Assembly (NCBI GenBank): GCA_029233925.1
Contig: JARGOX010000008.1
Coordinates: forward strand, 131,156-195,155
DNA from: Rhizobiaceae bacterium
GTDB taxonomy: Bacteria > Pseudomonadota > Alphaproteobacteria > Rhizobiales > Rhizobiaceae
DNA length: 64,000 nt
Reading direction: 5' to 3'
Each line of letters starts with the position of its first letter. The stretch's first letter is position 1. Of the stretch, positions 6,724-41,267 are shown piece by piece. The notes under the pieces are model-generated. The model searched no databases, was not told where the DNA came from, and worked only from the letters and a program-made list of their open reading frames with translations. The translations under genes and the position numbers were made by a program.

Positions 6724-7743
6724 TTACTGCAGTTCATTGCGCAGCAGCGCAGCGCCGGCTGCCAGCGCCTTGAGCTTGCCTTCGGCCACATGCCGCGACA
6801 GGGGCGCCATGCCGCAATTGGTGCAGGCAATGATGCGTTCGGGATCAACAAATTCCATTGCCGCACGGAGGGTGAATGCCACCTTTTCCGGTGTCTCGAT
6901 GGTATCGGTGGCGACATTGATGGCGCCGACCAGTATCTCCTTGTCCTTGAGCAATCCGAGGACGGAAAGCGGTACGCGCGAATCAGCGCATTCCAGAGAG
7001 ACCTGATCGATGCGGCTCTCGTTGAGCGCCGGGAAAAACTGCTCGTATTGAAGCCATTCCTTGCCAAGGCTTTCCTTCCAGTCGATGTTCTGCTGGATCC
7101 CGTAGCCGTAGCAGATATGCACGGCTGTTTTGCATTTCAGCCCTTCAATGGCCCGGTGCAGGGCTTCAACACCCCAGACGGGAACCTGATCCATGAAGGC
7201 GTTGAATGCCGGTTCGTCAAACTGGATGACATCAACACCCAGGGCTTCAAGTTCCAGCGCTTCCTGGTTGAGCAATGCGGCGAAAGCCATGGCCATTTCA
7301 GGACGGCTGCCATAATGGGCATCAGCGATGGTGTCGCAGATGGTCATTGGGCCGGGCAGGGTGAACTTGAACTGTTTGCTGGTGTTTTCGCGGCAGAATT
7401 TGACGCCGTCAGCATGCACGGATTTTTTGCGCCGGACTGCGGATGTCACCGTCGGCACCTGTGCATCATAACGATTGTCGCGAATGCCCATGGTGGTCAT
7501 GCGGTGCCAGTCGATGCCTTCGACCTCTTCCAGAAATCCGTGAACGAAATGCTTGCGGAATTGTTCGCCGTCACTGACAATATCGATACCGGCATCTTCC
7601 TGCAGCTTGATCCAGACCATGGCGGCATCGCGCTGCCCCTCCACAAGACCGGCTCCTTCCAGGCGCCAGGGAGCCCACAGCTTTTCCGGTTCAGCCAACC
7701 AGGATGGTTTCGGCAAACTGCCCGCGACCGTTGTTTTTATCAT
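6724..7743 (-). CDS. Short B12-independent methionine synthase-like protein (core MetE C-terminal domain)
   Basis: This 339-residue protein matches only the catalytic C-terminal barrel of MetE and lacks the large N-terminal domain of the roughly 750-residue enzyme. It starts TTVAGSLPKPSWL, and the zinc ligands are recognisable: His and Cys in AVHICYGYG, Glu in VSLECADS, Cys in IACTNCGM. IQFDEPAF is the substrate-site motif. The short family uses methyl donors other than methyltetrahydrofolate or partners with other proteins, so the donor here is unknown. It lies behind the LysR gene on the same strand, beside the oxygenase operon. I see no S-box or cobalamin riboswitch before it. Confidence 0.85.
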   Translation of the reverse strand: MIKTTVAGSLPKPSWLAEPEKLWAPWRLEGAGLVEGQRDAAMVWIKLQEDAGIDIVSDGEQFRKHFVHGFLEEVEGIDWHRMTTMGIRDNRYDAQVPTVTSAVRRKKSVHADGVKFCRENTSKQFKFTLPGPMTICDTIADAHYGSRPEMAMAFAALLNQEALELEALGVDVIQFDEPAFNAFMDQVPVWGVEALHRAIEGLKCKTAVHICYGYGIQQNIDWKESLGKEWLQYEQFFPALNESRIDQVSLECADSRVPLSVLGLLKDKEILVGAINVATDTIETPEKVAFTLRAAMEFVDPERIIACTNCGMAPLSRHVAEGKLKALAAGAALLRNELQ

Positions 7744-7875: not shown

Positions 7876-8844
7876 TCACATCTCGTTGTGTTCAATCTGA
7901 TTCTCTTTCTTTTCCCTGCGCTTGGCCGTGTAGAGATAGGAATAAACCTCTTCGAAATTATCCGACAGCGTATCGATCAGGGACCGGATGTTGGGATTTG
8001 CAAATCTGTGGCTCCAGAAAAGCGCATAGACGGGAATATATTGTGAGGACCATTTCGGCAGGATGCATTCAAGCAGACCGGCTCTTTCTTCCAGTTTTGC
8101 GAAGAATGCGGGGACAAAACAAATGCCATGATCATGAATGGCGCTGAGTTTGACGACCCAGTAATCATTGCTCAGGAGTTTGGTATCCGGCTGAACGCTG
8201 AATTTCTCCTTTCCTGACGTCAGATGCCAGGTCGTGACAGACCGGCCGTCGTGAAAACCCAGCAGATTATGCGAAAGAAGCTTGTTGGGATGGTCAGGTG
8301 TACCGTGGCTTTTCAAATATTCACCGGATGCATAAAGGCCGTAGGAAAAACGGCCCAAGAGGCGCGCGCTCATACTGGCAAATTGCGGCAGCGGCGGGTC
8401 GCCAAGATACAGGATGCAGTCATATTGCTCGCGCACTTCAGCCAGCGTATCGCGCTGAAAAACCATCACGTCGACATCAAGATTGGAATGGGTCTGCATG
8501 AAATGCATCAGGATTGGTGCCATCAGATTTGAGGCGAACTCACTTGATGTGGCGATATTGATCTTGCCGCCGACAAGGCTCTGGCTGTTTTTGGTGGCGT
8601 CAAGCGCCTGTTCGCAGGCGCGCCGGATCGAATGTGCGTGTTCGAGAAAATCCCGACCTGCATCGTTGAGCGTCATCTGATTGGCGGTGCGCAGGAACAA
8701 TGGGGTGCCAAGTTCATTTTCAAGGCGTTTCAACTGATGACTGACAGATGCTTTCGGCCGGCGCATGGCACGCGCAGCGCGCGACAGGGAGCCGTTTGAA
8801 ACGACTTGCAGAAAGACACTGATATCTTCGAGAATCATCGGCAT
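7876..8844 (-). CDS. LysR family transcriptional regulator of the split Rieske operon
   Basis: This 322-residue protein has an N-terminal winged helix (FLQVVSNGSLSRAARAMRRP and VSHQLKRLENELGTPLFLR) and an effector domain starting near residue 90 (GGKINIATSSEFASNLMAP). I start at the ATG at 8844 (MPMILEDI), preceded by AGGAAA; upstream in-frame codons have no LysR homology and would overlap the divergent gene. It is transcribed away from the Rieske-oxygenase and importer operon, the usual arrangement for a LysR activator. The inducer is presumably the imported heterocycle or a breakdown product, which is inference. Confidence 0.92.
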   Translation of the reverse strand: MPMILEDISVFLQVVSNGSLSRAARAMRRPKASVSHQLKRLENELGTPLFLRTANQMTLNDAGRDFLEHAHSIRRACEQALDATKNSQSLVGGKINIATSSEFASNLMAPILMHFMQTHSNLDVDVMVFQRDTLAEVREQYDCILYLGDPPLPQFASMSARLLGRFSYGLYASGEYLKSHGTPDHPNKLLSHNLLGFHDGRSVTTWHLTSGKEKFSVQPDTKLLSNDYWVVKLSAIHDHGICFVPAFFAKLEERAGLLECILPKWSSQYIPVYALFWSHRFANPNIRSLIDTLSDNFEEVYSYLYTAKRREKKENQIEHNEM

Positions 8845-8973: not shown

Positions 8974-9648
8974 ATGCAGAACAGCCATCCTGATCGCTGG
9001 GTCCCGGTCGGACTGGAGGCGCAATTCATGCCCGCATCCAGTCATCCGGTGGTCGTGGATGGATTTGGTCTGGCCGTCTGGCGCGGCGAAAATGGCGCGA
9101 TCCAGGTCTGGGAGGACCGCTGTCCCCACCGTGGCATGCGTTTGAGTTTCGGTTTTGTTGAAGGCAACAGTCTGACCTGTCTCTATCATGGCTGGAACTA
9201 CAGGCAGAATGGCCAGTGCAGTTCAATACCGGCGCATCCCGATCTCGATCCACCCGGTACGATCTGTACCAAATCCTTTGTGACCCGCTGCCATCGGGGC
9301 ACGGTCTTTGCAAATCTCGCCCCTGAGCCGGTTTCCGGATTTCCTTCCGTTGACGAAGCCGGCTGGATGCCCGTTCGCAGTGTCTATTTGAATGTGCCGG
9401 AAAAAAGAGTTCGCGAATACATCCTTGCGGGGCAGGGAACGTTGGGTCCCGGGTTTACGCAAACCGAGTTCGACAACTATGAATCCGGCCCTGATGCAGG
9501 GGACAGGACCGCCATTGCTATTCAACCGATTGATGACAACCATTGCGCCATTCACGTCACACGCAGCGGCCGGGATACAGATATTTATGCAAGCCTGAAG
9601 CTGGCACGGCGGCTTGTACGTGCGCGCCGCGAAATCGAAGCATTTTGA
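8974..9648 (+). CDS. Rieske [2Fe-2S] protein lacking a catalytic iron site (electron-transfer half of a split Rieske system)
   Basis: This 224-residue protein has an intact Rieske motif: C50-P-H52, sixteen residues, then C69-L-Y-H72. After residue 120 only about 100 residues remain, and no NxxDxxHxxxxH iron site is present, so it cannot hold the mononuclear catalytic iron. I start at the ATG at 8974, with GGAGA six bases upstream. The next gene has the complementary defect. In methylxanthine-degrading Pseudomonas, NdmD carries an extra N-terminal Rieske domain that serves Rieske-less NdmC. This protein looks like that domain as a separate gene, and would pass electrons from the reductase at 11180 to the oxygenase at 9663. 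Confidence 0.88.
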   Translation: MQNSHPDRWVPVGLEAQFMPASSHPVVVDGFGLAVWRGENGAIQVWEDRCPHRGMRLSFGFVEGNSLTCLYHGWNYRQNGQCSSIPAHPDLDPPGTICTKSFVTRCHRGTVFANLAPEPVSGFPSVDEAGWMPVRSVYLNVPEKRVREYILAGQGTLGPGFTQTEFDNYESGPDAGDRTAIAIQPIDDNHCAIHVTRSGRDTDIYASLKLARRLVRARREIEAF

Positions 9649-9662
9649 AGAAGGAACCCATC

Positions 9663-10547
9663 ATGTCCGTTACCGACGATCCGGTTGCCCTGAATCAATG
9701 GATTGCCTGCGCCTATGTGGGGCAGGTGACACCCGGAAAAAGCTACGATACCGCAATGCTCGGGCAGGCCATCCGTATTTCCTGCGCACTGGACGGGACC
9801 TGTACGTGCCATGAGATCGGTGACGATGGCGGTCCAGGCCGCCAATTACCCCTGTCGCAACGTTTCGAAATCCTTTTTACGACATTGGGTGATACGCCAC
9901 GTCAATTGCCGGACATTCCGGAATTTGCAGAGGCGGATAGAAGGGTTGCAAATTGTGCGAGTGTGGGCCTTCATGCCAGCCCCTTTCGTATTGTTGAAAA
10001 TTTCCTCGATATGGCGCATTTCTGCTTTGTCCATAAGGACATTCTGGGATCCATGGAAAAAACCGAGGTTTTTACCTACAAGACCGAGCACCGCAAGGAT
10101 GTGGATGAGATCTGGGCGACAGATTGTGCCTTCTTTCAACCGGCCGCTTCGACATCGGCTGCCGAAAAGGGCGGCGGCCAGGTCACCTATTACAAATACC
10201 GCGTGATGTCGCCCTTCAGTGTCATGCTCTACAAGACAGTCTATGGAAATGCTGAACGTGACGATGCAATTTGCCTCTTCATCCAGCCGAAATCCGAAAC
10301 CGAATGTATCGCCTATATGCCGATGGCAATTCTTGATGATCAGTCCACCATGACGCAGATTATCGACTTTCAGCAGACCATTTTCCTGCAGGACCGGATC
10401 ATTCTGGAAAACCAGCGTCCGGTGCTGCTGCCGCTCACACCTTCGGCCGAAATCCCCACCAAGGCCGATGTCAGTTCCATTGCCTTTCGGCGCTGGCTGA
10501 AAGGTATGGGAATGCGGTTTGGTATTCTCCAGGAACAGGCGGCCTGA
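9663..10547 (+). CDS. Rieske-less non-heme iron oxygenase subunit (NdmC-like catalytic half)
   Basis: The 294-residue product resembles the alpha subunit of a Rieske mono-oxygenase, but its N-terminal Rieske-like fold (about residues 10-75) has lost the CxH and CxxH ligands. The mononuclear iron motif is intact: N113, D116, H119, H124 in ENFLDMAHFCFVH. D244 in FLQDRIILENQ is a good candidate for the third ligand. The start at 9663 has GAAGGAA upstream, 14 bases after the Rieske gene. It should be the substrate-oxidising subunit, probably removing an N- or O-methyl group as formaldehyde. NdmC, the 7-methylxanthine demethylase, is the closest described precedent for this architecture. The substrate is inferred. 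Confidence 0.88.
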   Translation: MSVTDDPVALNQWIACAYVGQVTPGKSYDTAMLGQAIRISCALDGTCTCHEIGDDGGPGRQLPLSQRFEILFTTLGDTPRQLPDIPEFAEADRRVANCASVGLHASPFRIVENFLDMAHFCFVHKDILGSMEKTEVFTYKTEHRKDVDEIWATDCAFFQPAASTSAAEKGGGQVTYYKYRVMSPFSVMLYKTVYGNAERDDAICLFIQPKSETECIAYMPMAILDDQSTMTQIIDFQQTIFLQDRIILENQRPVLLPLTPSAEIPTKADVSSIAFRRWLKGMGMRFGILQEQAA

Positions 10548-10550
10548 TCG

Positions 10551-11180
10551 ATGGCACTCAAACTTTATAATTATACCCTTTCGGGTAGTTGCTACAAAGT
10601 GCGGCTGTTGCTGGATTTTCTGGACCTCGATTACGAACGGATTCCCGTCGACTTCTTTCCCGGCAAAGAACACAAAACGCTCGATTTTCTGGATATTAAT
10701 CCTCTGGGTCAGATTCCCGTGCTGGAAGATGGTCCAATGCGCCTTCGCGATGCACAGGCAATCCTTGCGCATCTGGCCAACAGTTACGATGAAACCGGCC
10801 ATTGGTTGCCGCGGGCACCTGCTCTCTTTGGTCCTGTCATGATGTGGCTGATGTTTGCGGGCAATGAAATCATGGCTGCCTCCGCTGCCCGGCTGCATGA
10901 TGTATTGGGCTATGAGCTCGATATTGAGGCCGCACGTGCCAATGCGCATGCTGCTTTTCGTGTGCTCGATGATCACCTGACCGAACGCGCCCTGATCGGA
11001 AAGACCTGGATTGTCAGTGACCATCCAACCATCGCGGATATTGCCTGCTTCCCTTATACTGCGTTGTCGGGCGATGGTGGGATCGGACATGAAGAATACC
11101 CGGCCATGCGCAATTGGATGCGTGCGTTCAGGCGCCTGCCGGGGTTCAACGCGGTCTCCGGTATTCCGGAGTTTGCCTGA
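10551..11180 (+). CDS. Glutathione S-transferase-like protein (NdmE-like)
   Basis: This 209-residue protein has an N-terminal thioredoxin-fold GST domain (LYNYTLSGSCYKVRLLLDFL, with cis-proline motif NPLGQIPVLED near residue 55 and LRDAQAIL) and an all-helical C-terminal domain. It follows the oxygenase gene within a few bases, and its stop shares a base with the next start (TGATG at 11178-11182). In the NdmCDE complex the GST-like NdmE has been described as a structural partner needed for assembly, and gene order here is the same. A glutathione-dependent role, such as formaldehyde handling, is the alternative. Confidence 0.85.
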   Translation: MALKLYNYTLSGSCYKVRLLLDFLDLDYERIPVDFFPGKEHKTLDFLDINPLGQIPVLEDGPMRLRDAQAILAHLANSYDETGHWLPRAPALFGPVMMWLMFAGNEIMAASAARLHDVLGYELDIEAARANAHAAFRVLDDHLTERALIGKTWIVSDHPTIADIACFPYTALSGDGGIGHEEYPAMRNWMRAFRRLPGFNAVSGIPEFA

Positions 11181-12154
11181 TGGCAGGTCCGCAGGAACAG
11201 ATCGAAGTCATCGTTCGCCACATTGCCGTGGAGACACAGGACATACGCAGCTTCGTTCTGGAACGCGCGGACCGCAATCTTTTGCCTGCATTCAGACCCG
11301 GTGCCCATATCGATGTGGAACCCGTACCTGGCCTAATCCGCCAATATTCGCTTGTCGGAAGTCCTGCGGACCGGACACAATATATGATCGGCGTCAAGAA
11401 GGAACCGCGCAGTCGCGGTGGTTCCAGCGCAATGCATGGCGCACTTCAGGAAGGCAGTCTCCTGAAGATCAGTCCGCCAAAAAACAATTTTGCGCTGGAC
11501 GATACCTGTGGCAGGTGCCTGCTTCTTGCGGGCGGCATCGGTGTTACGCCGCTTTTGAGCATGGCTCAATCCCTGGCTTTGCGGGGTGAGAAATTCGAAC
11601 TGCATTACTTCGTGCGAACCAGCGCCGACCTTGCCTTTTCAATGCTTTTGTCTGCCCCGCAAATGAAGCCGCATGTGTTTTTCCACTTCGGCCTGGTGCC
11701 ACCGGCACTGAATGATTTCCTGCAGATATTGCTGCGGGAGGCTGCCTGCGACGATCAGATATATATGTGTGGGCCAACCGCTTTCATGGAATCCATTCGC
11801 GTTGCGGCTGCGGACGAGGATTGGTCACAGGATCGTATTTTTCACGAACATTTTTCGGCAGCACCTTCGCCACTGCCACTTGAAGGAGACTCCTTCGTCC
11901 TGCGCCTGCTGGCCAGTGATCTCGAGCTGGTCGTTCCACCAGACAGATCGATTGTCGAAGTGATGCGTGATGCCGGCATCGAAATTGCCACAAATTGCGA
12001 ACAGGGCATTTGCGGCACCTGCGTCGCGCGAATGGTTGAAGGCGATCCTGATCACCGCGACATGTATCTGACCGACGAAGAGCACGATAACGAGCAATTA
12101 TTCGCCCCTTGTGTCTCGCGGGCGAAATCCAGGCTGCTGGTGCTTGATCTGTGA
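11180..12154 (+). CDS. Flavin and plant-type [2Fe-2S] oxidoreductase (phthalate-dioxygenase-reductase/NdmD class)
   Basis: This 325-residue reductase takes electrons from NAD(P)H to the Rieske protein. The order is a flavin domain (RQYSLVGSP near residue 55), a nucleotide domain (LLLAGGIGVTPLLSMA, then YMCGP) and a C-terminal plant-type ferredoxin with ligands C-x4-C-x2-C-x29-C starting at NCEQGICGTC. I take the ATG at 11180, which overlaps the GST stop by one base. NdmD carries all of this plus an N-terminal Rieske domain. Here that domain is the separate gene at 8974, so the 224- and 325-residue products together approach NdmD's size. VanB-type reductases share the same three domains. Confidence 0.92.
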   Translation: MAGPQEQIEVIVRHIAVETQDIRSFVLERADRNLLPAFRPGAHIDVEPVPGLIRQYSLVGSPADRTQYMIGVKKEPRSRGGSSAMHGALQEGSLLKISPPKNNFALDDTCGRCLLLAGGIGVTPLLSMAQSLALRGEKFELHYFVRTSADLAFSMLLSAPQMKPHVFFHFGLVPPALNDFLQILLREAACDDQIYMCGPTAFMESIRVAAADEDWSQDRIFHEHFSAAPSPLPLEGDSFVLRLLASDLELVVPPDRSIVEVMRDAGIEIATNCEQGICGTCVARMVEGDPDHRDMYLTDEEHDNEQLFAPCVSRAKSRLLVLDL

Positions 12155-12188
12155 ACGGGGCTGGGTAACGGATGTGGAAGGAGCCCTC

Positions 12189-13748
12189 ATGAAACAGGCC
12201 ACTGAAAGCCGCAGAGGTGATCCACTCCTTGTCATTTCGGATCTGACCAAACGTTTTGGAGAATTCACTGCCAATGACGGCATCTCCCTGGAGCTCGAAC
12301 CGGGTGAAATTCATGCGATCCTTGGCGAAAATGGCGCCGGCAAGAGCACGTTGATGAAAATGATCTACGGCGTCTTGAAGCCCGATTCCGGAACGCTGAA
12401 GTGGCGAGGAAAACCTGTAATCCTGCACAATCCCGCCCATGCGCGCGCGCTAGGCATAGGTATGGTTTTTCAACATTTTTCGCTGTTTGAATCTTTGACC
12501 GTTGCGGAAAACATCTCATTGGCTATCCCTGAAACGGTCAAATTGCTGCGCAGCCGTATTGCAGAGGTCAGCACCCGTTATGGATTGCCGGTCGATCCGG
12601 ACGCATTGGTTCACAAACTTGCGATGGGCCAGAGACAGCGGGTCGAGATTACCCGTTGCCTGTTGCAGGAGCCGCAGTTGATCATCATGGATGAACCCAC
12701 CTCGGTTCTGCCACCGAGTGCAGTGCCGATTCTGTTTGAGACAATCCGTAAACTGGCGGCGTCGGGATGCGCGGTCCTGTTTATCAGCCACAAGCTGGAA
12801 GAAATCCGCAGCCTTTGTCACAAGGCAACGGTGATGCGAGCCGGGCGGATAGTCGCGACAGTCGATCCGGCGGTTGAAAGCAGCGCATCGCTGGCAAAGC
12901 TCATGATCGGGCGTGACATCCCGCATCCATCAAGGTCTGCAGCGAAACCCTCGGATGTTCCGGCGCTTTCACTACACAATCTGACCCTTGCTCCGGACGA
13001 TCCCTTTGGAACAAGACTGGATGATATAAGTCTGCAGGTGCGTCCTGGAGAAATCGTCGGGATAGCCGGCGTATCCGGCAATGGTCAACGCGAACTTGCG
13101 GCGGTTTTGTCAGGTGAACAGCCACTGCCTGCAAAACAGAATGGCAGCGTTCGGCTGTTTGGCGGGGATTGCGGGCATTCCGACTGTGGCCACCGCCGTG
13201 CTCAAGGAATGGCTTTCGTGCCTGAAGACCGAAACGGACGCGGTTCGGTCGCCGAAATGACCTTGGAGCAGAACGCCCTTCTGACCGGCTATGCTCGGAA
13301 TCTCGTGGCCTATGGTTTTGTTCGCAACGCGGCTGTGTCAAAGTTTGCTCAGGACTGCATCCACGAGATGGATGTGCGTTGCAGCGGTGGCGATGCCGAG
13401 GCGCGGAGCCTGTCGGGCGGCAATTTGCAAAAATTCATTGTCGGGCGTGAATTGGCCCTGAAACCCAAAATTCTGGTTGCTTCTCAGCCGACATGGGGTG
13501 TTGACATTGGCGCTGCTTCGGCCATCCGGCAAAGACTTGTCGATCTTCGGGATGAAGGCGTGGCGATCCTGATTATCAGCGATGAGCTGGAGGAACTTGT
13601 CGAAATTGCCGACCGGGTTCATGCACTGTTTCGTGGCAGCCTTTCGCCTTCGATCGAGCGCGGCGACGTGACGGACGAACTGATCGGGTCCTATATGGCA
13701 GGCAATTTTTCCCCCGAAAAACTGTCCGTCGAGGTGAGCGGGCCATGA
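12189..13748 (+). CDS. BMP-type (nucleoside/purine class) ABC transporter ATPase with two nucleotide-binding domains
   Basis: This fused double ATPase has about 519 residues. Domain 1 is complete: Walker A GENGAGKST, signature region LAMGQRQRVEITRC, Walker B LIIMDEPTSVL. Domain 2 is degenerate at the active site: GVSGNGQRE replaces Walker A, and the Walker B area reads VASQPTWGVD in place of DEP, although its signature LSGGNLQK is good. This asymmetry is usual in importers that work with BMP-family binding proteins. The ATG at 12189 follows AAGGAG and lies 34 bases after the reductase gene, so it is very likely in the same operon. It overlaps the first permease by four bases. Confidence 0.92.
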   Translation: MKQATESRRGDPLLVISDLTKRFGEFTANDGISLELEPGEIHAILGENGAGKSTLMKMIYGVLKPDSGTLKWRGKPVILHNPAHARALGIGMVFQHFSLFESLTVAENISLAIPETVKLLRSRIAEVSTRYGLPVDPDALVHKLAMGQRQRVEITRCLLQEPQLIIMDEPTSVLPPSAVPILFETIRKLAASGCAVLFISHKLEEIRSLCHKATVMRAGRIVATVDPAVESSASLAKLMIGRDIPHPSRSAAKPSDVPALSLHNLTLAPDDPFGTRLDDISLQVRPGEIVGIAGVSGNGQRELAAVLSGEQPLPAKQNGSVRLFGGDCGHSDCGHRRAQGMAFVPEDRNGRGSVAEMTLEQNALLTGYARNLVAYGFVRNAAVSKFAQDCIHEMDVRCSGGDAEARSLSGGNLQKFIVGRELALKPKILVASQPTWGVDIGAASAIRQRLVDLRDEGVAILIISDELEELVEIADRVHALFRGSLSPSIERGDVTDELIGSYMAGNFSPEKLSVEVSGP

Positions 13749-14839
13749 GTGTGTTTCCGTTTTCCATCGAAACCCGCACGCGGCGAACGCGCTTCAGCGC
13801 GATCATTCCGCCACTCATCGCGGTATGCACCACGATCGTGGCCAGCATTATTATCCTGACCAGCCTTGATGTATCGCCATCGCGGGCGCTTTACTACCTC
13901 TACATCGCGCCGATGGCGACGAGGTTCAATTTTGCCGAAGTAATCCTGAAGATGGCGCCGCTTTTGCTCATCGCCCAGGGGCTTGCGATTGGTTTTCGTG
14001 CCAGGATCTGGAATATCGGGGCCGAAGGGCAACTGATCATGGGTGCCATCGGTGGCAGCCTGCTGCCTATCTGGTTCAATGATAGCGGCAATATCCTGAT
14101 GCTGCCAGCGATGGTTGTGGTTGGCGCAATCTTTGGTATGGCTTGGGCGGCAATCGCTGCGGTGCTGCGTGTTCGCATGAATGCCAACGAGATTCTCGTC
14201 ACGCTGATGCTGAACAGTATTGCGCTGCAAGTGTTGTATTATCTGATTTCCGGCCCGCTGCGCGATCCCTTCGGGTTCAACTTCCCCCAATCGGCGCTGT
14301 TTCCCGATGTGGCAATGCTGCCAATTCTGCTGGCCAATACACGTGCCAATATTTCGATCTTCTTTGCGGTTCTGGTAACGCTTCTGGCATGGTTTTTCAT
14401 GCAGAGGTCGTTCCCCGGCTACAGGTTGCAGGTCGGAGGCAGCGCTCCCGATGCCGCCCGCTATGCAGGTTTTGGCGAAAAGCAGGCGATTTGGGTCAGC
14501 CTGCTTGTCGGAGGTACGTGTGCCGGCATCGCCGGTGTCTTCGAGGTTGCCGGACCCCTGGGGCAGTTGCAGCGGGTCGTGACTCCTGGATACGGTTTTG
14601 CCGCGATTATCGTGGCCTTTCTGGGTGGGCTGAACGCGCTTGGCATTCTGGCAGCGGCATTCTTCATGGCATTGATCTATGTCGGCGGTGACATCGCGCA
14701 GACCTCAGCCAAGGTTCCTTATTCGGTCAATACTATTCTGCAGGGCGTTTTGCTGGTCTCCTATATCGCATCGCGTGTCTTCAGCGATTACCGTGTCCGG
14801 CTCAGGAAGCCGGCGTATAACCGACAGGAGCGCGTTTGA
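13745..14839 (+). CDS. ABC transporter permease, nucleoside/purine importer class (first subunit)
   Basis: This inner-membrane subunit has 364 residues and eight to ten hydrophobic segments. The family signatures GLAIGFRARIWNIGAEGQLIMG and the MNANEILVTLMLNSIALQ stretch are those of the larger permease of BMP-dependent importers. The start overlaps the ATPase stop (ATGA at 13745-13748) and the end overlaps the second permease (TGATG). Known relatives carry purine nucleosides or free purines, which supports a purine-like substrate for the adjoining split oxygenase. The exact ligand is inference. Confidence 0.9.
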   Translation: MSVFPFSIETRTRRTRFSAIIPPLIAVCTTIVASIIILTSLDVSPSRALYYLYIAPMATRFNFAEVILKMAPLLLIAQGLAIGFRARIWNIGAEGQLIMGAIGGSLLPIWFNDSGNILMLPAMVVVGAIFGMAWAAIAAVLRVRMNANEILVTLMLNSIALQVLYYLISGPLRDPFGFNFPQSALFPDVAMLPILLANTRANISIFFAVLVTLLAWFFMQRSFPGYRLQVGGSAPDAARYAGFGEKQAIWVSLLVGGTCAGIAGVFEVAGPLGQLQRVVTPGYGFAAIIVAFLGGLNALGILAAAFFMALIYVGGDIAQTSAKVPYSVNTILQGVLLVSYIASRVFSDYRVRLRKPAYNRQERV

Positions 14840-15759
14840 TGGATACATTGACATTTCTTCTGTCCGGTACGCTTCTGGCGGCCACACCGCTGCTGATCGC
14901 CGCGCTGGGTGAGCTTGTTACCGAAAAATCCGGCGTCCTGAATCTGAGCATCGAGGGAATGATGGCATTGGGCGCCGTCACCGGCTTCATTGTTGCGACA
15001 GCGTCCGGGTCCTACTGGCTTGCCCTGCTGGCGGGCGGGGTCGCGGCTGCCGCGCTGGCGGCGGTTTTCGGTTTCGTCGTTCTTGTGACCCTGGGTAACC
15101 AGGTGGCCTCCGGCATTGCCGTCGGAATCCTGGGTATCGGTCTGTCAGGCCTGATCGGGCGGCCCTATGAGAGTTCGACCATCGCACCGATGCACGAATT
15201 GCCGATCCCGTTTCTCTCGAATGTACCGGTGATCGGTCCGGGCCTGTTCGACCATGTGGCGCTGGTCTATTGCGCGCCATTGCTGGCCGTCGCCACCTGG
15301 TGGCTTTTGCGTTCGACCAAAGTCGGGCTGGTTATTCGCGCCGTCGGTGAAGCACCCGAGGCTGCCCATGCCATTGGCTACAATGTGGTTCTGGTGCGCT
15401 TTTGTGCGGTTCTTTATGGCGGCTTTTGCGCAGGGATCGCGGGAGCGTTCATCTCCATCGCTTCCGCTACGCTCTGGTCGGACGGAATCATAGCCGGACG
15501 CGGCTGGATTGTTGTGGCGCTGGTCGTATTCGGCACCTGGCGGTCCGGGCGCGTCGCCATCGGCGCCTATCTCTTCGGTATGACCACTTTGGCGGGCTTG
15601 CTTGTTCAGAGCACCGGTATCGCCATTCCCTCTCAGGTTCTGACCAGCGTTCCCTATATCGTGACAATCATCGCCATCGCGATGTTGTCAATGGATCCGC
15701 AGCGTATCCGGCTGAATGCACCAGTCTCGCTGGGGCAAATCTATCATGAAGCAAAATAA
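14839..15759 (+). CDS. ABC transporter permease, nucleoside/purine importer class (second subunit)
   Basis: This 306-residue partner permease has about eight hydrophobic segments. The hallmark LGELVTEKSGVLNLSIEGMM near residue 25 is diagnostic of the smaller permease in BMP-type importers, and NQVASGIAVGILG lies in the middle. The ATG at 14839 shares a base with the previous stop; the preceding in-frame TTG at 14836 is less likely. The binding-protein gene follows after 23 bases. Confidence 0.9.
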   Translation: MDTLTFLLSGTLLAATPLLIAALGELVTEKSGVLNLSIEGMMALGAVTGFIVATASGSYWLALLAGGVAAAALAAVFGFVVLVTLGNQVASGIAVGILGIGLSGLIGRPYESSTIAPMHELPIPFLSNVPVIGPGLFDHVALVYCAPLLAVATWWLLRSTKVGLVIRAVGEAPEAAHAIGYNVVLVRFCAVLYGGFCAGIAGAFISIASATLWSDGIIAGRGWIVVALVVFGTWRSGRVAIGAYLFGMTTLAGLLVQSTGIAIPSQVLTSVPYIVTIIAIAMLSMDPQRIRLNAPVSLGQIYHEAK

Positions 15760-15782
15760 CCAACCAAAAGAAAGGGTACACA

Positions 15783-16847
15783 ATGAAACGTATACTGACA
15801 GCAATTCTTCTCGCTGCGGGACTGGCAACGACCGGCCACGCTGCGGATCTGAAAATGGGATTTATCCTCCCGTCTCCGGCAGCGGATGTCGGCTGGGCCA
15901 AACAGCTTGATCTCGGTCGTGAAGCGGTTGAGGCGGCTTTTGGTGACAGGGTCGAGACGACGATGGTTGAAAGCGTTCCCGAAGGTCCCGATGCAGCACG
16001 GGTTATGAACCAGATGATCAGCGACGGTGCCACCATGTTGATGCTGGGTTCATTCGGTTACATGAATGATGGTCTGAAACTGGCGCGTTCTCATCCTGAA
16101 GTTGCCATGATTCATGCCAGTGGTTACAAACAGGCGGATAATTTCGCCACCTTCACTGCGCGCAATTACGAGGGCTTCTATCTCGGCGGCATGGCCGCCG
16201 GCATGGTCACCAAAAGCAACATTATCGGGATGGTCGCTGCCTTCGCTATCCCCGAGGTCGTGGCCGAAGTCAACGCGATCACCCTTGCCGCCCAGAAGGT
16301 CAATCCCGAAGCACAGGTCAAGGTGATTTGGCTGAATTCCTGGTTTGATCCGCCAAAGGCGCAGGAAGCTGCCCGGGCGCTGATCTCCCAGGGTGCGGAC
16401 GTCCTGTTCTCCCTGCATCAGGATACCCCGTCAGTTGTTAATGTCGCGGAGGCTGAAGGCATCTATGTGGTCAATACCAGCTCTGACATGAGCGCCTATG
16501 GTCCCAACAGCGTGCTTGCTTCGGTCACCAATGACTGGTCGGACTATTTCGTGTCTTTGGTGCAGGACAAGTTGGACGGCAAGTTCAAGGGCGCTGATTT
16601 TCGCGGTGGGCTGAGCGAAGGTGCGGTCAAGATGGCTGCCTGGAGCAAAGATCTGAGTGATGAGCAGATGGCTGAACTGAAAAAGACAGAGGAGAGTTTT
16701 GCCGCAGGCCAGAGTCATGCATTTGACGGACCCATCATTGATCAGGACGGCACCGAGCGGGTGGCAGCAGGCGCCACTCTGCCTGATGGCGAAATTTTCG
16801 GTATGAACTGGCTGGTCAAGGGTGTGGATGGCAGCGTGCCGAACTGA
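15783..16847 (+). CDS. BMP family ABC transporter substrate-binding protein
   Basis: This periplasmic protein of 354 residues has a Sec signal peptide (MKRILTAILLAAGLATTGHA, then ADLKMGFILP). There is no lipobox cysteine, unlike the lipoprotein forms in Gram-positives and spirochaetes. The fold signatures DVGWAKQLDLGREAVE, ARNYEGFYLGGMAAGMVT and NDWSDYFV fit the BMP/Med family, which binds nucleosides and purines. It is the last gene of the importer block and has GAAAGG upstream. Because the operon begins with a demethylase-like oxygenase, the bound molecule is probably the oxygenase substrate, possibly a methylated purine. Confidence 0.9.
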   Translation: MKRILTAILLAAGLATTGHAADLKMGFILPSPAADVGWAKQLDLGREAVEAAFGDRVETTMVESVPEGPDAARVMNQMISDGATMLMLGSFGYMNDGLKLARSHPEVAMIHASGYKQADNFATFTARNYEGFYLGGMAAGMVTKSNIIGMVAAFAIPEVVAEVNAITLAAQKVNPEAQVKVIWLNSWFDPPKAQEAARALISQGADVLFSLHQDTPSVVNVAEAEGIYVVNTSSDMSAYGPNSVLASVTNDWSDYFVSLVQDKLDGKFKGADFRGGLSEGAVKMAAWSKDLSDEQMAELKKTEESFAAGQSHAFDGPIIDQDGTERVAAGATLPDGEIFGMNWLVKGVDGSVPN

Positions 16848-27328: not shown

Positions 27329-28255
27329 CTATCCTGCGGCAGCTTCCAGGAGGGTGGAAAGCGCCATTTCACGGATGCGCGTGGCGTTGGCCCTGGTGCC
27401 CAATTGTGTGGCTCCGGTACCTTTTGCCGAAGCGTCAATGACCGTGCGGCCACGGGTGAGATTGCCCGCGCATTCGACTGCGATGGACATGGTCTGAAAA
27501 GCCAGGGTGGTTTTATCAATCAGCGGTGCTGCTGCGACGGGATCATAGAGCGCCATTGATTCCCGGCCCTTTGAAATGCCGATATTGATATAACCACCAA
27601 ACAGATCGTGCAGCAGCGCCGCTTTCGGGGTATCGATTTTCTGCAGGCCGATCAGATCAGCTGGCGAGACCGTGACCTGACGGCAGGCATCCAGATCAAC
27701 CATTTTGAACGGCACGCCACTTGCACAGACAATGGCTGCGGCTTCCGGATCGGCAAAGGCATTGAACTCGGCAGACGCCGTGTGGTTGCCGGAGGTCGCG
27801 CCGCCACCCATCCAGGTAATGCACTGCAGTTGTGGCAAGAGGTCGGGGCGCGCCAGACACAGGATGGCAATATTGGTCAGCGGCCCAAGTGCCAGCAATT
27901 CGGCCTTACCATCGGCATTTTCCAGCCATTGGACAAGCGCTGCAAGAGCCGCTGCCCGCTGCGGCAACGGGTCTGCATCAGGCAAGGCCCGGCCCAGCGT
28001 GGGCAAACCGGTGGGACCCAGCACATGTCCCGCCGTCACCAGATCTCCAACCAGCGGTTTTGCAGCGCCGATATGGATTGGGAAGGTCCAATTGAATGTT
28101 GCCGCCATACTGGCTGCATTTTTGCAAACCTGTGGAAGCGGTGCGTTGCCAAATACCAGCGAGCAACCGGCGATCATCCGTTTTGAGTGGTTCACCATCA
28201 TGATGGCGAGCATGTCGTCAAAGCCCATATCGGCATCGATCCACAATGAATTCAT
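27329..28255 (-). CDS. Inosine-uridine-preferring nucleoside hydrolase family protein
   Basis: This 308-residue enzyme splits the N-glycosidic bond of nucleosides. The calcium-binding DADMGFDDMLAI motif is at residues 6-17 (family DxDxGxDD). EFNAFADPEAAAIV and LLALGPLTNIAI are the other conserved blocks, with the final calcium Asp within LYDPVAAAPLID. The start at 28255 (MNSLWIDADMG) puts the motif at the usual place. It is convergent with the porin. Together with the phosphoribosyltransferase at 24283 and the BMP-type importer it adds to a purine-related theme, though the genes are not in one operon. Confidence 0.92.
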   Translation of the reverse strand: MNSLWIDADMGFDDMLAIMMVNHSKRMIAGCSLVFGNAPLPQVCKNAASMAATFNWTFPIHIGAAKPLVGDLVTAGHVLGPTGLPTLGRALPDADPLPQRAAALAALVQWLENADGKAELLALGPLTNIAILCLARPDLLPQLQCITWMGGGATSGNHTASAEFNAFADPEAAAIVCASGVPFKMVDLDACRQVTVSPADLIGLQKIDTPKAALLHDLFGGYINIGISKGRESMALYDPVAAAPLIDKTTLAFQTMSIAVECAGNLTRGRTVIDASAKGTGATQLGTRANATRIREMALSTLLEAAAG

Positions 28256-28601
28256 GACAGGGCATATCCGTTGAAACAAGGCAGGGCTGACGCGCAACTA
28301 TTCTGCACATCGCATTTTCCCGCAGCGGTTAGGAGACCAATAAAGGATGGCATGTATTGACCTGCCCTAATGGGGAAAAATGCAGCTCCGGCCGCGTCCT
28401 TTTGATCTGTCATGAATCAGCGTCTTTGTCGAAAATTGACTGTTGCTCTATCGTTATGTGTTGTTCAGCCATTGTGTAAACAGCAAAAGGCGAAATTGCC
28501 TGTGGCGGCCATTGTTTTGATCCGTCACAGGCACGTCTTTACCGACGGACCCTTTCCGCCTGCAGGATCGGATGCCTGGGCACACGATCACAGGCTCAGG
28601 T
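28256..28601. other. 346-base intergenic stretch without a convincing gene
   Basis: This stretch lies between the nucleoside hydrolase start and the end of the small secreted protein gene, both on the minus strand. The open frames on the plus strand have no ribosome-binding site or recognisable sequence. It should hold the nucleoside hydrolase promoter near 28260-28380, but I could not assign boxes with confidence. Confidence 0.5.
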
Positions 28602-36385: not shown

Positions 36386-37378
36386 ATGCATAAAACATTA
36401 AAATTACTCGGTATAGGGGTGGGAATTGCTTTTGCACTTTCCTCCGGTGCGGTCGCGCAAACAAAGAAAATCGCCTATTTTGCCGCTGCTTCGCAAAACG
36501 GTTTCAACCAGGCCACCTATGAGGGCGTGGAAGCAAAGGCCAAGGAACTTGGCTATGAAACCGCCATTTTTGATGGTCAGTTCAAGGCCGATGTCCAATA
36601 CAGTCAGATCGAGGATGTCCTGGCCAGCGGCAATTACGCCGGTTTCATCGTGGCGCCCAATGATTCCGTTGGTGTCGCCGGTGCATTCGAACAGGTCATC
36701 GCCGCCGGAGTGCCGATTGCAACAGTTCTGTTCCCCGTCGGTCCCGATCTGACGACCTTGGAGCCGCAGGTCAAAGGCATCACCTCAACGGTTGCTTCGC
36801 CGCCCGTGGCAGGTGCAACGCAACAGGCCGAGGCCGTCGTTTCCGAGTGCGAAAGCAAGGATCCCTGCAATGTCGTTATCATCATTGGCGCCAAGGTTTT
36901 TCCGTTTGACAATCTGCGCCTTGAAACCTTTGAAAAGGTGCTTGGTGCGCATGACAACATCAAGATCAGGGCCGTTGGCGAGGGCTGGTATTCGCCGGAA
37001 CCTTCACTCAAGGCAATGACGGATATTCTGCAGGCCAATTCGGACATTCACGTCGTTCTTTCCAATGCGGACCAGCATCTGGTCGGGGTGGAAATTGCAC
37101 TGGAAGCTGCCGGTTACAATGTTCCTGATCTTTACCTGTCGGGAGGCGGTGCCGCAGCGATTGCCATTGACGCCATACGCGAAGGGCGTTGGGATGCAAC
37201 CCTTGCCTATTTCCCGGTCACCATGGGTGCACTGGCCATGGAACAGATTGCCAATGCCATTGAAGGCAAGCCGGTGACGGTTGCGATCGATATGGATACG
37301 GCTGGGCCGCTGGAAGCCATGATCGACAGGGCGGTGCTCGACGCCAACCCTGATTTCGCCGGTGAATGGGCGCAATAA
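36386..37378 (+). CDS. Ribose-type (CUT2) ABC transporter substrate-binding protein
   Basis: This periplasmic protein of 330 residues has a Sec signal (MHKTLKLLGIGVGIAFALSSGAVAQ) and the type I periplasmic fold: KKIAYFAAASQNGFNQATYEGV at the mature start and SGNYAGFIVAPNDSVGVAG for the ligand cleft. ECESKDPCN contributes two Cys. It is first in an operon that continues with hydantoinase subunits, an RbsA-type ATPase and a permease. The ligand is likely a small cyclic amide or other HyuAB substrate in place of a sugar, judging from the neighbours. Confidence 0.92.
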   Translation: MHKTLKLLGIGVGIAFALSSGAVAQTKKIAYFAAASQNGFNQATYEGVEAKAKELGYETAIFDGQFKADVQYSQIEDVLASGNYAGFIVAPNDSVGVAGAFEQVIAAGVPIATVLFPVGPDLTTLEPQVKGITSTVASPPVAGATQQAEAVVSECESKDPCNVVIIIGAKVFPFDNLRLETFEKVLGAHDNIKIRAVGEGWYSPEPSLKAMTDILQANSDIHVVLSNADQHLVGVEIALEAAGYNVPDLYLSGGGAAAIAIDAIREGRWDATLAYFPVTMGALAMEQIANAIEGKPVTVAIDMDTAGPLEAMIDRAVLDANPDFAGEWAQ

Positions 37379-37384
37379 TATTTC

Positions 37385-37407
37385 GGCCGGGGCCTTTGGT
37401 CCCGGCC
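37385..37407 (+). terminator. Stem-loop after the CUT2 binding-protein gene
   Basis: GGCCGGG (37385-37391) pairs with CCCGGCC (37401-37407) around a nine-base loop. There is no T-tract. It lies seven bases after the binding-protein stop and 114 bases before hyuA, and could stabilise the upstream message or reduce read-through. Confidence 0.5.
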
Positions 37408-37521
37408 TGTCATCCAATCTGAAGAGACATGCGGAATTGACGTGGTTGCGCCAATATGCAGCTCCCGTGACAGGAACGTCAAATCCGGCAGACTTCAATA
37501 TAAGAACATGAGGGACTGGCC

Positions 37522-39552
37522 ATGGGTAACAACTATCGCGTCTCTGCGGATATCGGCGGCACTTTTACAGACATTGTCTTTCAAGATAGCGAGAGCGGTG
37601 CCTGTGGCGCCACCAAAGTGCTCTCCACACCTGAAAACCCGGCACTTGCAGTTATAAACGGAATTGATGCGGCTATTCCCGCAGATGCGCAGATCGATTT
37701 CTTCGTGCACGGAACCACGGTAGGGCTGAACGCTCTGCTCACCCGTCGCGGGGCCAAGGTCGCGCTGCTGACAACCGAGAATTTTCGCGACATCTACACA
37801 ATTCAGGGCAATGATCGCGGTAAAATATTTTCCATCCGCTGGGACAAGCCCGAACCGCTGGCAACCCTTGAACACACCTACACGGTGAAAGAGCGGATCG
37901 CGGCAACCGGAGAGGTGGTCGAACCTCTGAGTACCGATGATCTTGATGCTTTCATCGAAGCGGTAAAGCGCGAGGGCTATGAAGCCATTGCCATATGTTT
38001 CCTGTTTTCATTCAAGAATGCTTCCCATGAACTGGCGGCCGCCGACTACATCAGCGCGCGGCTGCCCGGTATCGCCATTGCCCAGTCCCATCAGGTCTCG
38101 CCGGAGTGGCGGGAATTCGAGCGCACCTCAACGACGGTGATGGACAGCTATCTTGCACCGGTTGTGCGCAAATACCTTGAAACGCTTGTCGGCAATCTCA
38201 AGAACAGGTTGCCAGAAGGGCAGGGCCTGCATGTGATGGAATCAAACGGTGGCGTCATGAGTGCCGCGTCGGCCAGCCAGACCCCTTTGCAGACCTTGCT
38301 ATCGGGTCCAGTGGGCGGCGCCATCGGCGGCAAGGCGCTGTCCGCGGCCACCGGCCGACCCAATCTGATTTGTGTGGATATGGGCGGCACATCCTTTGAT
38401 GCCAGCCTGATCATCGACGGTCTGCCATCGACCTCCAATGAGACCAAGCTGGAGGGGCTTCCGGTGCAGATGTCTGTTGTCGATATCCATGTCATTGGTG
38501 CCGGCGGAGGCTCCATTGCCTGGAAAGAAGCCGGCGCCATGCGTGTCGGACCGCAATCGGCCGGCTCCAATCCCGGACCCGTGTGTTACGGGCTAGGCGG
38601 CACCGCGCCGACCGTATCGGACGCCAATCTGGTGCTCGGACGACTGGATGGTGCAAATTTTTCCGGTGGACAAGTGGTGCTGGATCGTAGCGCTTCCCAG
38701 GCTGCACTGGGCAAAATGGGTGCCGATTTCAATCTTGATGCCGAGGCCATGGCCCAGGGCATCGTCGACATTGTGAATGCGAAGATGGCCGATGCCATTC
38801 GCACCATTACGGTGCAGCGCGGTATTGATCCACGTGACTTTTCTCTGGTCGCCTTTGGTGGAGCCGGTCCCGCGCAGGCCGCAGCACTGGCGGAGGAACT
38901 GCAGATCCGCGAAGTAATCATACCCGTGCACCCCGGCGCTTTTTCGGCCTGGGGCATGCTGCAAACGGATGTGCGCCATGATTTCAAGGAAACGCTTTAC
39001 GGGTTTTGGGATACGACCGAAGTTGCAACGCTCAATGATGCCTTCGATGCGCTCGTGGAAAAAGGCACAGCCTATCTGCTTGCAGAATGTCTGGCGCCCG
39101 ATGCGATCAGTTTCGAGCGCGCCGTGGACTTTCGCTATCACGGTCAGGAATATGTCCTGACCATACCGATCCCTGACGGACCGATAGACATGGACGCCGT
39201 TCGCAAATCCTTTGATCATGCCTATGAGCGCCAGTACGGCCATTCCAGTCCCGATGGACGGGTGGAAATGGCCAATATCCGGCTTGCCGCGCTTGGCAGC
39301 TTGCCGCGCCCGGCAAATGCACCGCCGGCAAAAGCAGAGGCCGGCGCCCGCCGCGAGCGTGACGTCTATTTTGATGGCAAGCCTAGAAAAACCACCATTC
39401 TTGATCGCAATGAAATGCAGCTGGGCGATAGGGTCGATGGCCCGGCCATCATTGAAGAGGGCACCGCGACAACGCTGTTGCCGCCCGGCTGGCGCGCCAG
39501 TGCCATTGAAGGCGGTCACCTGTCCCTCGTTCAAACGGGAGTTTCGTCATGA
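37522..39552 (+). CDS. hyuA: Hydantoinase/oxoprolinase subunit A (ATP-dependent cyclic amide hydrolase)
   Basis: The 676-residue protein starts with the phosphate-binding fold of the family, SADIGGTFTDIVFQD, followed by FVHGTTVGLNALLTRRGAKVALL. The central CVDMGGTSFDASLI is the second ATP motif, and AFGGAGPAQAAALAEEL is typical of the A subunit. With HyuB it uses ATP to open cyclic amides such as 5-oxoproline, hydantoins or N-methylhydantoin; related pairs carboxylate acetone or hydrolyse caprolactam. It overlaps hyuB by four bases (ATGA). Being inside an ABC importer operon suggests the imported compound is its substrate. Confidence 0.93.
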   Translation: MGNNYRVSADIGGTFTDIVFQDSESGACGATKVLSTPENPALAVINGIDAAIPADAQIDFFVHGTTVGLNALLTRRGAKVALLTTENFRDIYTIQGNDRGKIFSIRWDKPEPLATLEHTYTVKERIAATGEVVEPLSTDDLDAFIEAVKREGYEAIAICFLFSFKNASHELAAADYISARLPGIAIAQSHQVSPEWREFERTSTTVMDSYLAPVVRKYLETLVGNLKNRLPEGQGLHVMESNGGVMSAASASQTPLQTLLSGPVGGAIGGKALSAATGRPNLICVDMGGTSFDASLIIDGLPSTSNETKLEGLPVQMSVVDIHVIGAGGGSIAWKEAGAMRVGPQSAGSNPGPVCYGLGGTAPTVSDANLVLGRLDGANFSGGQVVLDRSASQAALGKMGADFNLDAEAMAQGIVDIVNAKMADAIRTITVQRGIDPRDFSLVAFGGAGPAQAAALAEELQIREVIIPVHPGAFSAWGMLQTDVRHDFKETLYGFWDTTEVATLNDAFDALVEKGTAYLLAECLAPDAISFERAVDFRYHGQEYVLTIPIPDGPIDMDAVRKSFDHAYERQYGHSSPDGRVEMANIRLAALGSLPRPANAPPAKAEAGARRERDVYFDGKPRKTTILDRNEMQLGDRVDGPAIIEEGTATTLLPPGWRASAIEGGHLSLVQTGVSS

Positions 39553-41255: not shown

Positions 41256-41267
41256 CAGGGCGGACAA

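What the first reader, a model, noticed from the sequence alone, without database searches (positions are those of the whole stretch)
8974..16847. Split Rieske oxygenase (NdmC/NdmD/NdmE-like) fused in one operon with a purine-class ABC importer
Seen: a Rieske-only protein (C50, H52, C69, H72; no iron site) is followed by an oxygenase subunit with the iron site (N113, D116, H119, H124, D244) but no Rieske ligands, then a GST-like protein, then a flavin/plant-ferredoxin reductase. A complete BMP-type importer follows with gaps of at most 34 bases. Known: methylxanthine-degrading Pseudomonas uses NdmC (no Rieske), NdmD (reductase with extra Rieske domain) and GST-like NdmE for N7-demethylation. 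Here NdmD is divided into two genes and the whole set is tied to an importer class known for purines and nucleosides. Inference: an alphaproteobacterial uptake and N-demethylation system for a methylated purine or related heterocycle. The fixed pairing of two half-oxygenases is rare and may mark an undescribed lineage.
Basis: partly seen in the sequence, partly recalled or inferred. Interest (0 to 1): 0.88.

Follow-up and report, generated by a model that had tools for sequence, protein, structure and literature searches.

The report
Two-piece oxygenase with purine importer
An operon encodes an oxygen-using enzyme whose two working parts sit in two separate proteins, together with an importer for purine-like molecules; relatives of the caffeine-degrading enzyme NdmC share this design, and it appears to have arisen when a duplicated enzyme lost opposite halves.

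Summary
In detail: 8974-16847 encodes a Rieske-only subunit, a catalytic-iron-only subunit, a GST-like protein, a flavin/[2Fe-2S] reductase and a BMP-type ABC importer. All four enzyme proteins match an ndmB-linked NdmC/D/E set (31-45% identity), but the pairing is not rare: of 51 loci tallied, 48 have the Rieske partner and 49 the GST. The window's catalytic subunit branches outside the NdmC group, so NdmD looks like a fused derivative, not the template that was divided. New here: the two halves keep remnants of the domains they lost, and both group (97/97, 97/96) with undivided oxygenases that lie beside the same importer type and have no GST. This points to duplication, reciprocal loss and a GST adaptor. 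The binding protein's closest solved relatives hold guanine and adenine. BMP proteins from oxygenase loci carry Asp at one guanine-contact position (37 of 38 examined; 0 of 9 unlinked). Guanine/8-oxoguanine-type deaminases adjoin 17 of 51 loci. Most likely function: oxidation of an imported purine base; N-demethylation is favoured but not shown.

The parts
7876..8838 (-). LysR-type regulator, divergent from the operon (start taken at the conserved domain; the ORF is open further upstream)
   Evidence: PF00126, PF03466; LysR in the same position in Paracoccus L041 and Marinibacterium L026
8974..9648 (+). Rieske subunit P0001, 224 aa: intact Rieske domain (ligand codons 9121-9189)
   Evidence: PF00355 3.2e-20; ligands invariant; model pLDDT 90.7
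9364..9642 (+). C-terminal part of P0001 (residues 131-223): remnant of an oxygenase catalytic domain without iron ligands
   Evidence: Foldseek aligns the model along undivided oxygenases, TMq 0.72-0.77, rmsd 4.6-6.8, 264-288 columns in the top 24 entries; no Pfam catalytic hit
9663..10547 (+). Catalytic subunit P0002, 294 aa: iron site N113/D116/H119/H124 (9999-10034) and D244 (10392-10394)
   Evidence: PF19112 1.8e-22; invariant residues; model pLDDT 85.7; Foldseek TMq up to 0.86
9687..9998 (+). Remnant Rieske domain at the N-terminus of P0002 (residues 9-112), lacking the cluster-binding loops
   Evidence: hhalign of the two families 96.7%, E 4.3e-10, with about 49 P0001 columns unaligned that include both cluster-binding loops
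10551..11180 (+). GST-like protein P0003 (NdmE-like)
   Evidence: PF02798 1.3e-13; 45% to Klebsiella NdmE; GST in 49 of 51 split loci, 0 of 10 undivided loci
11180..12154 (+). Flavin/plant-type [2Fe-2S] reductase P0004
   Evidence: Fer2 2.9e-14, NAD_binding_1; 38% to NdmD C-terminus
12189..13748 (+). ABC ATPase of the importer, two ATP-binding domains (P0005)
   Evidence: PF00005, two stretches, 2.2e-47
13745..14839 (+). ABC permease 1
   Evidence: PF02653 8.5e-39
14836..15759 (+). ABC permease 2
   Evidence: PF02653 4.2e-33
15783..16847 (+). BMP/PnrA-type binding protein P0006
   Evidence: PF02608 3.1e-43; AtzT 1.8e-80 and 3s99 4.6e-80; purine-sandwich residues kept

Best explanation
The operon imports a purine-type base and oxidises it with a two-piece Rieske non-heme iron oxygenase. 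Most likely electron path: NADH, then the flavin and plant-type [2Fe-2S] cluster of the reductase, then the Rieske cluster of the 8974 protein, then across a subunit boundary (bridging D116) to the mononuclear iron of the 9663 protein. The GST-like protein would hold the two pieces together. Each piece keeps a remnant of the domain it lost, so the pair most likely arose by duplication of an undivided oxygenase followed by loss of opposite active centres. The product would enter ordinary purine catabolism, which the genome encodes elsewhere. Shown: gene content, ligand sets, remnant Rieske domain by profile and both remnants by model, relatedness and synteny. Inferred: complex formation, electron path, purine substrate. 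Least certain: the reaction, for which oxidative N-demethylation of a methylated purine (NdmC precedent) is preferred over ring hydroxylation.
For: Complementary active centres. Remnant domains: hhalign 96.7%; both models match undivided oxygenases along most of their length. Both halves fall with the same seven importer-linked undivided oxygenases: 97/97 catalytic tree, 97/96 Rieske tree. GST in 49 of 51 split loci and none in 10 undivided ones at E<0.01. Two different fusions between these parts (Rieske-reductase in L048/L049, catalytic-reductase in L047). Distance matrices of catalytic and Rieske proteins correlate r=0.76, versus 0.36 and 0.38 with GST, 38 loci. Importer: nearest solved proteins hold guanine (AtzT) or adenine (3s99); W at 45, S97 and W194 in 31 of 31 and Asp at 220 in 30 of 31 split-linked BMP proteins examined, Asp 220 in 7 of 7 undivided-linked versus 0 of 9 other BMPs. 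Deaminases of guanine/8-oxoguanine type in 17 of 51 loci, several above curated cut-offs. Own genome has XDH (1351 bits), guanine deaminase (572 bits), 8-oxoguanine deaminase (624.8 bits), each above its cut-off.
Against: No ligand, substrate or complex was measured. The window operon itself has no deaminase, and 34 of 51 loci show none within the stretch seen. N-demethylation rests only on 40% identity to an NdmC relative in an ndmB-linked cluster; HpxD-type relatives oxidise purine rings instead. Pocket residues differ between operon types, so substrates probably differ too. The remnant catalytic domain in P0001 is seen by structure only, at rmsd 4.6-6.8; the profile comparison reached only residue 148.
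Confidence: 0.6

Rival explanations
1. Same two-piece oxygenase and purine importer, but the reaction is C-H hydroxylation of an unmethylated or already oxidised purine ring (for example C8 of guanine, followed by 8-oxoguanine deaminase to urate), as a molybdenum-independent purine oxidation like HpxDE.
For: Paracoccus L041 joins the operon to an 8-oxoguanine deaminase; HpxDE is reported to oxidise hypoxanthine and xanthine (PMC7373994 passages); 5 of the 8 undivided relatives opened match HpxD best among my reference proteins (33-35%); nearest solved oxygenases SxtT/GxtA are hydroxylases (activity recalled; hits).
Against: The own genome already encodes xanthine dehydrogenase and guanine deaminase and relatives carry such genes; NdmC, a demethylase subunit, lies inside the split clade while HpxD lies outside the branch that joins split and importer-linked undivided oxygenases in the Rieske tree.
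Confidence: 0.25
2. The substrate is a purine look-alike (s-triazine, pterin or another plant or soil heterocycle) and purine kinship is only ancestral.
For: AtzT of the same binding-protein family also binds 2-hydroxyatrazine and ammeline; the linked Rhizobium amidohydrolase of L046 is below the 8-oxoguanine deaminase cut-off (366 of 532 bits); the L078 island adds a GMC dehydrogenase and a sulfopyruvate-decarboxylase-like pair.
Against: Guanine deaminase above its curated cut-off beside the split genes in L042, L079, L091 and L095; guanine is the tightest ligand tested for AtzT (0.11 uM).
Confidence: 0.12
3. The two genes are a simple fission of one oxygenase gene, not a duplication with complementary loss.
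For: Adjacent genes in the order Rieske then catalytic, as in one undivided chain.
Against: A fission would leave each domain once; here the catalytic protein keeps a Rieske-like N-terminus and the Rieske protein keeps a catalytic-like C-terminus, and in some loci the Rieske gene lies apart on the other strand (L042, L077, L080).
Confidence: 0.08

Closest known systems
NdmC-NdmD-NdmE N7-demethylase of Pseudomonas putida CBB5 (PMC4408171, passages)
   Same: Catalytic subunit without Rieske, Rieske supplied by another protein, GST-like third protein, reductase of the same kind; sequence kinship of all four proteins to the Klebsiella homologues
   Different: In NdmD the Rieske part is fused to the reductase, here it is a free protein; the window branches apart from NdmC; an importer is part of the operon here; substrate untested
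Undivided Rieske oxygenases beside BMP/ABC importers (L133-L139; Leptolyngbya L098)
   Same: Same importer type; L133-L139 are the nearest undivided kin found for both halves
   Different: One chain carries both centres; no GST in the locus; I know of no assigned function
HpxD/HpxE purine oxidation enzyme of Klebsiella and relatives
   Same: Rieske oxygenase plus reductase in purine oxidation
   Different: HpxD is undivided (Pantoea L053) and outside the split clade
AtzT / 3s99 purine-binding BMP proteins (PMC6834077)
   Same: Fold family and purine-sandwich residues of the binding protein
   Different: N218, N220 and N169 replaced by H, D and E in the window
SxtT/SxtDIOX (GxtA) oxygenases
   Same: Closest solved structures to both halves by sequence and fold
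   Different: Single chains from a biosynthetic pathway (recalled); not used further

Membership tests
NdmCDE-type oxygenase | Catalytic subunit with iron site and no Rieske ligands | tested here: met
   P0002: VanA_C/KshA_C only, N113/D116/H119/H124/D244 invariant, no Rieske motif
NdmCDE-type oxygenase | Extra Rieske domain fused to the reductase (NdmD) | tested here: not met
   Separate genes 8974-9648 and 11180-12154
NdmCDE-type oxygenase | GST-like third subunit in the same operon | tested here: met
   P0003, 45% to Klebsiella NdmE
NdmCDE-type oxygenase | Catalytic subunit falls in the NdmC branch | tested here: not met
   NdmC with mostly fused-type rows 94/93, window in a separate 7-row clade 100/100; both inside one split clade 99/98
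NdmCDE-type oxygenase | N7-demethylation of 7-methylxanthine | not testable with these tools
   Needs enzyme assay
Rieske non-heme iron oxygenase (superfamily) | Rieske ligands and 2-His-1-carboxylate iron site | tested here: met
   Met jointly by two proteins, neither alone
HpxDE purine oxidation enzyme | Undivided oxygenase chain grouping with HpxD | tested here: not met
   Divided; HpxD outside the split clade
BMP-type purine/nucleoside ABC importer | PnrA-like binding protein, two BPD_transp_2 permeases, ATPase with two ATP-binding domains | tested here: met
BMP-type purine/nucleoside ABC importer | Binds a purine base | tested here: inconclusive
   Sandwich aromatics, S97 and E165 kept; N218/N220/N169 changed

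The most novel reading that the evidence does not exclude
A widespread, undescribed bacterial route imports modified purine bases from nucleic-acid turnover (for example 7-methylguanine) and oxidatively restores them with a hetero-oligomeric Rieske oxygenase. The enzyme arose by duplication and reciprocal loss of active centres, with a GST recruited as adaptor; caffeine-degrading NdmCDE is a later, fused offshoot of it.
Probability: 0.3. Interest if true: 0.8.

Novelty: new variant of a known kind. Interest (0 to 1): 0.6.

Why it matters
[quoted passage not shown] If the reading here holds, it is one offshoot of a broad family whose usual form is fully separated, and the route from one chain to two can be followed in living genomes, because undivided relatives sit in the same operon context. 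That makes the role of the GST subunit and of inter-subunit electron transfer directly testable. It also predicts unrecognised use of modified purine bases by rhizobia and other Proteobacteria.

Tried and rejected
Riboswitch control: Rfam at gathering thresholds on the window and 22 other loci (23 sources) gave no purine or xanthine riboswitch; the only hit was a group II intron in L049. Literature: all ten searches covered open-licence papers only. Among the listings shown (Rieske + 8-oxoguanine deaminase: 0 papers; NdmCDE: 7 papers) I saw no title or abstract start describing the unfused form with importer. I read passages only of PMC4408171, PMC7373994 and PMC6834077 (the last also its results section), so this is a weak absence. 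The clade test on 'split + undivided' was set up with a wrong member (L140, which falls with Mycetohabitans): it rejected that set in the catalytic tree (p 0.0006) and gave p 0.057 in the Rieske tree. The support values quoted are instead the tree branches uniting split + L133-L139; I did not rerun the test without L140. Those trees used 16 of 55 catalytic and 15 of 45 Rieske rows picked by me. HpxD and three other undivided oxygenases were left out of the catalytic trees, and NdmB out of the Rieske trees, because my motifs did not match them. The 'RieskeRED' count of 11 is a best-hit label and overstates fusions: L034 and L095 are unfused by length, L073 is unclear. Thirteen of the 51 rows were entered by hand from annotations, 38 came from BLAST. 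BMP rows dropped from the pocket count before counting: L028 and L038 (weak matches); those of L050-L052 were not examined. Naming the organism by DNA similarity failed: the 12 of 141 records shown match only 3-7% of the query at 70-74%.
Full report
WHAT IS THERE. The operon is as described: eight genes on the + strand, 8974-16847, with gaps of at most 34 bases and a divergent LysR gene upstream. P0001 carries only a Rieske domain. P0002 carries only the VanA_C/KshA-type catalytic domain. P0003 is GST-like, P0004 is a flavin/[2Fe-2S] reductase, and the rest is a complete BMP-type ABC importer.

HOW COMMON IT IS. Matches to the catalytic subunit were found in 306 plasmid records (a count that includes undivided oxygenases) and in 17 loci of one genome scan. 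They were also found in 17 of 61 related genomes at E 0.001 (own genome and three weak matches included), 8 of 385 class genomes at 1e-25 (own included) and 23 of 398 phylum genomes at 1e-25 (own included). Of those 23 I opened 10 besides the window: 8 held undivided oxygenases and 2 the split form. In 51 loci tallied, 48 have a Rieske partner, 49 a GST, 38 parts of a BMP/ABC importer, 17 a guanine/8-oxoguanine-type deaminase and 18 an acylphosphatase-like gene (13 rows entered from annotations, 38 from BLAST). The three without a Rieske partner are L039 (contig starts inside the gene), L044 (record starts 3 kb upstream) and L043 (none within about 10 kb). Loci are related by descent, so these are not independent trials. 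My rough expectation for a 20-kb stretch in a 6.1-Mb genome with three such deaminases is about 0.01 per locus (own arithmetic).

RELATION TO NDMCDE. The Klebsiella plasmid locus L049 has an NdmB gene (1.4e-186 to PDB 6icl), then a TIM-barrel gene, then catalytic-only, Rieske-reductase and GST genes. The review names a K. pneumoniae strain among the closest ndmCDE homologues. Window proteins match these at 40% (catalytic), 31% (Rieske), 38% (reductase) and 45% (GST). In a tree of 54 split catalytic proteins with five undivided ones, the split proteins form one side (99/98). The Klebsiella NdmC groups with the mostly Rieske-reductase-fused type (94/93). The window lies with Paracoccus and Rhodobacteraceae sequences (7 rows, 100/100). 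Two different fusions exist: Rieske-reductase (569-617 aa ORFs in L037, L048, L049, L074, L088-L091) and catalytic-reductase (L047). Separate genes are the more common state among the 51 loci. So the window is a sister form of NdmCDE, not a divided NdmD.

HOW THE PAIR AROSE. A profile comparison of the two families aligns P0001 5-148 with P0002 9-112 (96.7%, E 4.3e-10), leaving about 49 columns of P0001 unaligned that include both cluster-binding loops. The catalytic protein therefore keeps an emptied Rieske domain. Conversely the P0001 model (pLDDT 90.7) aligns with undivided oxygenases over 264-288 columns in the top 24 entries at TMq 0.72-0.77 and rmsd 4.6-6.8, with strands and helices after the Rieske domain but no iron ligands. 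P0002 (pLDDT 85.7) aligns over 333-341 columns at TMq 0.76-0.86 in its top 24. Undivided relatives with both motifs in one chain were found in L133-L140. In L133-L139 they sit directly beside a BMP gene and an ABC importer, and in five of these seven a guanine-deaminase-like gene is near; L140 has no importer. Leptolyngbya L098 shows an importer-oxygenase order too. In separate domain trees the split catalytic domains (16 picked) join L133-L139 at 97/97, and the split Rieske domains (15 picked) share with L133-L139 a branch of 97/96 against all other rows; L140 falls with Mycetohabitans in both. GST genes are absent from the ten undivided loci tested at E<0.01 (two of them only about 8.7 kb long) and were found in eleven split loci chosen as positive controls. 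Together these favour duplication, reciprocal loss and recruitment of a GST. The order of events is inferred. The review postulates that NdmE aligns the Rieske cluster of NdmD with NdmC; the presence pattern here fits that.

COUPLING OF THE PARTS. Distances among catalytic and Rieske proteins correlate at r=0.76, against 0.36 (catalytic-GST) and 0.38 (Rieske-GST), in 38 loci that have all three proteins, after dropping six near-duplicates and the second catalytic paralogue of L048; 0 of 5000 permutations reached any of the three values. Shared ancestry inflates all three values; the contrast is the informative part.

WHAT IS IMPORTED. P0006 is closest to AtzT (1.8e-80) and 3s99 (4.6e-80). AtzT was crystallised with guanine and binds it at 0.11 uM; 3s99 has adenine modelled (PMC6834077, passages and the results section). 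I mapped the published contacts, anchored at N218; the numbering agreed at four further residues. In 31 BMP proteins from split loci (score at least 130 bits; two weaker ones and those of L050-L052 not counted) position 45 is W, S97 and W194 are kept in 31 of 31, and position 220 is Asp in 30 of 31 (L073 has Ser). In the undivided loci the BMP next to the oxygenase has Asp at 220 in 7 of 7, with Thr at 97, and the other BMPs of the same loci in 0 of 9 (the broken BMP of L141 and that of L142, both with Asp, were not counted). Positions 218/169/165 vary by group: H/E-or-D/E in the window group and L072/L093; I/S-or-G/S in the L042 group (some with guanine deaminase, the Acetobacteraceae without one seen); A/S-or-T/E with the Rhizobium-type amidohydrolase; M/P/D in the L048 group. 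So the importer pocket changes with the presence and type of the oxygenase. This links the two, and it suggests that different groups take up different purine derivatives.

WHAT THE ENZYME DOES. Neighbouring guanine deaminases pass the curated cut-off (L042, L079, L091, L095), an 8-oxoguanine deaminase does so in L083, and Paracoccus L041 carries one by sequence match to solved structures. Two islands (L078, L081) carry a pucD-like xanthine dehydrogenase below its cut-off (683 and 692 of 784 bits) with a pucC-like part well below its own (196 and 181 of 306). The window operon has no deaminase, but its genome has xanthine dehydrogenase, guanine deaminase and 8-oxoguanine deaminase, each above its cut-off. 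Oxidation of an imported purine base feeding this pathway is the best reading. N-demethylation is preferred because NdmC is the only characterised member of the split clade that I know of, and because hydroxylation of plain purines would duplicate enzymes already present. It is not shown, and ring hydroxylation (HpxDE-like) remains a live rival.

NOVELTY. The NdmCDE principle is published, including 18 organisms with homologues of unknown function. In the ten literature searches listed under Tried and rejected I saw no account of the unfused form, its remnant domains, its undivided importer-linked relatives or the importer pocket signature; those searches cover open-licence papers only. I therefore rate it a new variant of a known kind.

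Noticed in passing
window 27329-28297 (-): Inosine-uridine-type nucleoside hydrolase (PF01156, 5.6e-66) about 10 kb downstream of the operon; could feed purine bases.
   Followed up: no
window 36386-43732 (+): Hydantoinase A/B pair with a Peripla_BP_4 binding protein and, by the look of the ORFs, ABC ATPase and permease genes: a possible separate uptake and ring-opening operon.
   Followed up: partly
window 6724-7743 (-): Short MetE-like methionine synthase (PRK09121, 543 bits against a cut-off of 392) directly behind the LysR gene.
   Followed up: no
L078 5033-13173, L081, L083: A second catalytic-only gene lies beside an amidohydrolase and a xanthine-dehydrogenase-like pair (pucC/pucD-like in L078 and L081; L083 not scanned). 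L078 adds a GMC dehydrogenase and a sulfopyruvate-decarboxylase-like pair: an unexplained larger purine-type pathway.
   Followed up: partly
18 of 51 loci, e.g. L046 8914-9180, L041 19240-19545: A small acylphosphatase-like gene recurs beside the split oxygenase (PF00708 above cut-off in L041, just below in L046); its role is unclear.
   Followed up: no
L043 10001-10867: Roseicitreum antarcticum plasmid has a catalytic-only subunit with no Rieske partner, GST or BMP importer within about 10 kb.
   Followed up: no
L049, L073, L083, L095, L102: 2-oxoglutarate-dependent oxygenases recur near ndm-like, split or undivided oxygenase genes.
   Followed up: no
L141 14259-15842: The binding-protein gene of a close relative's operon appears broken into two frames.
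   Followed up: no
L098 3701-4675: Cyanobacterial undivided Rieske oxygenase directly behind a BMP-type importer on a Leptolyngbya plasmid.
   Followed up: partly
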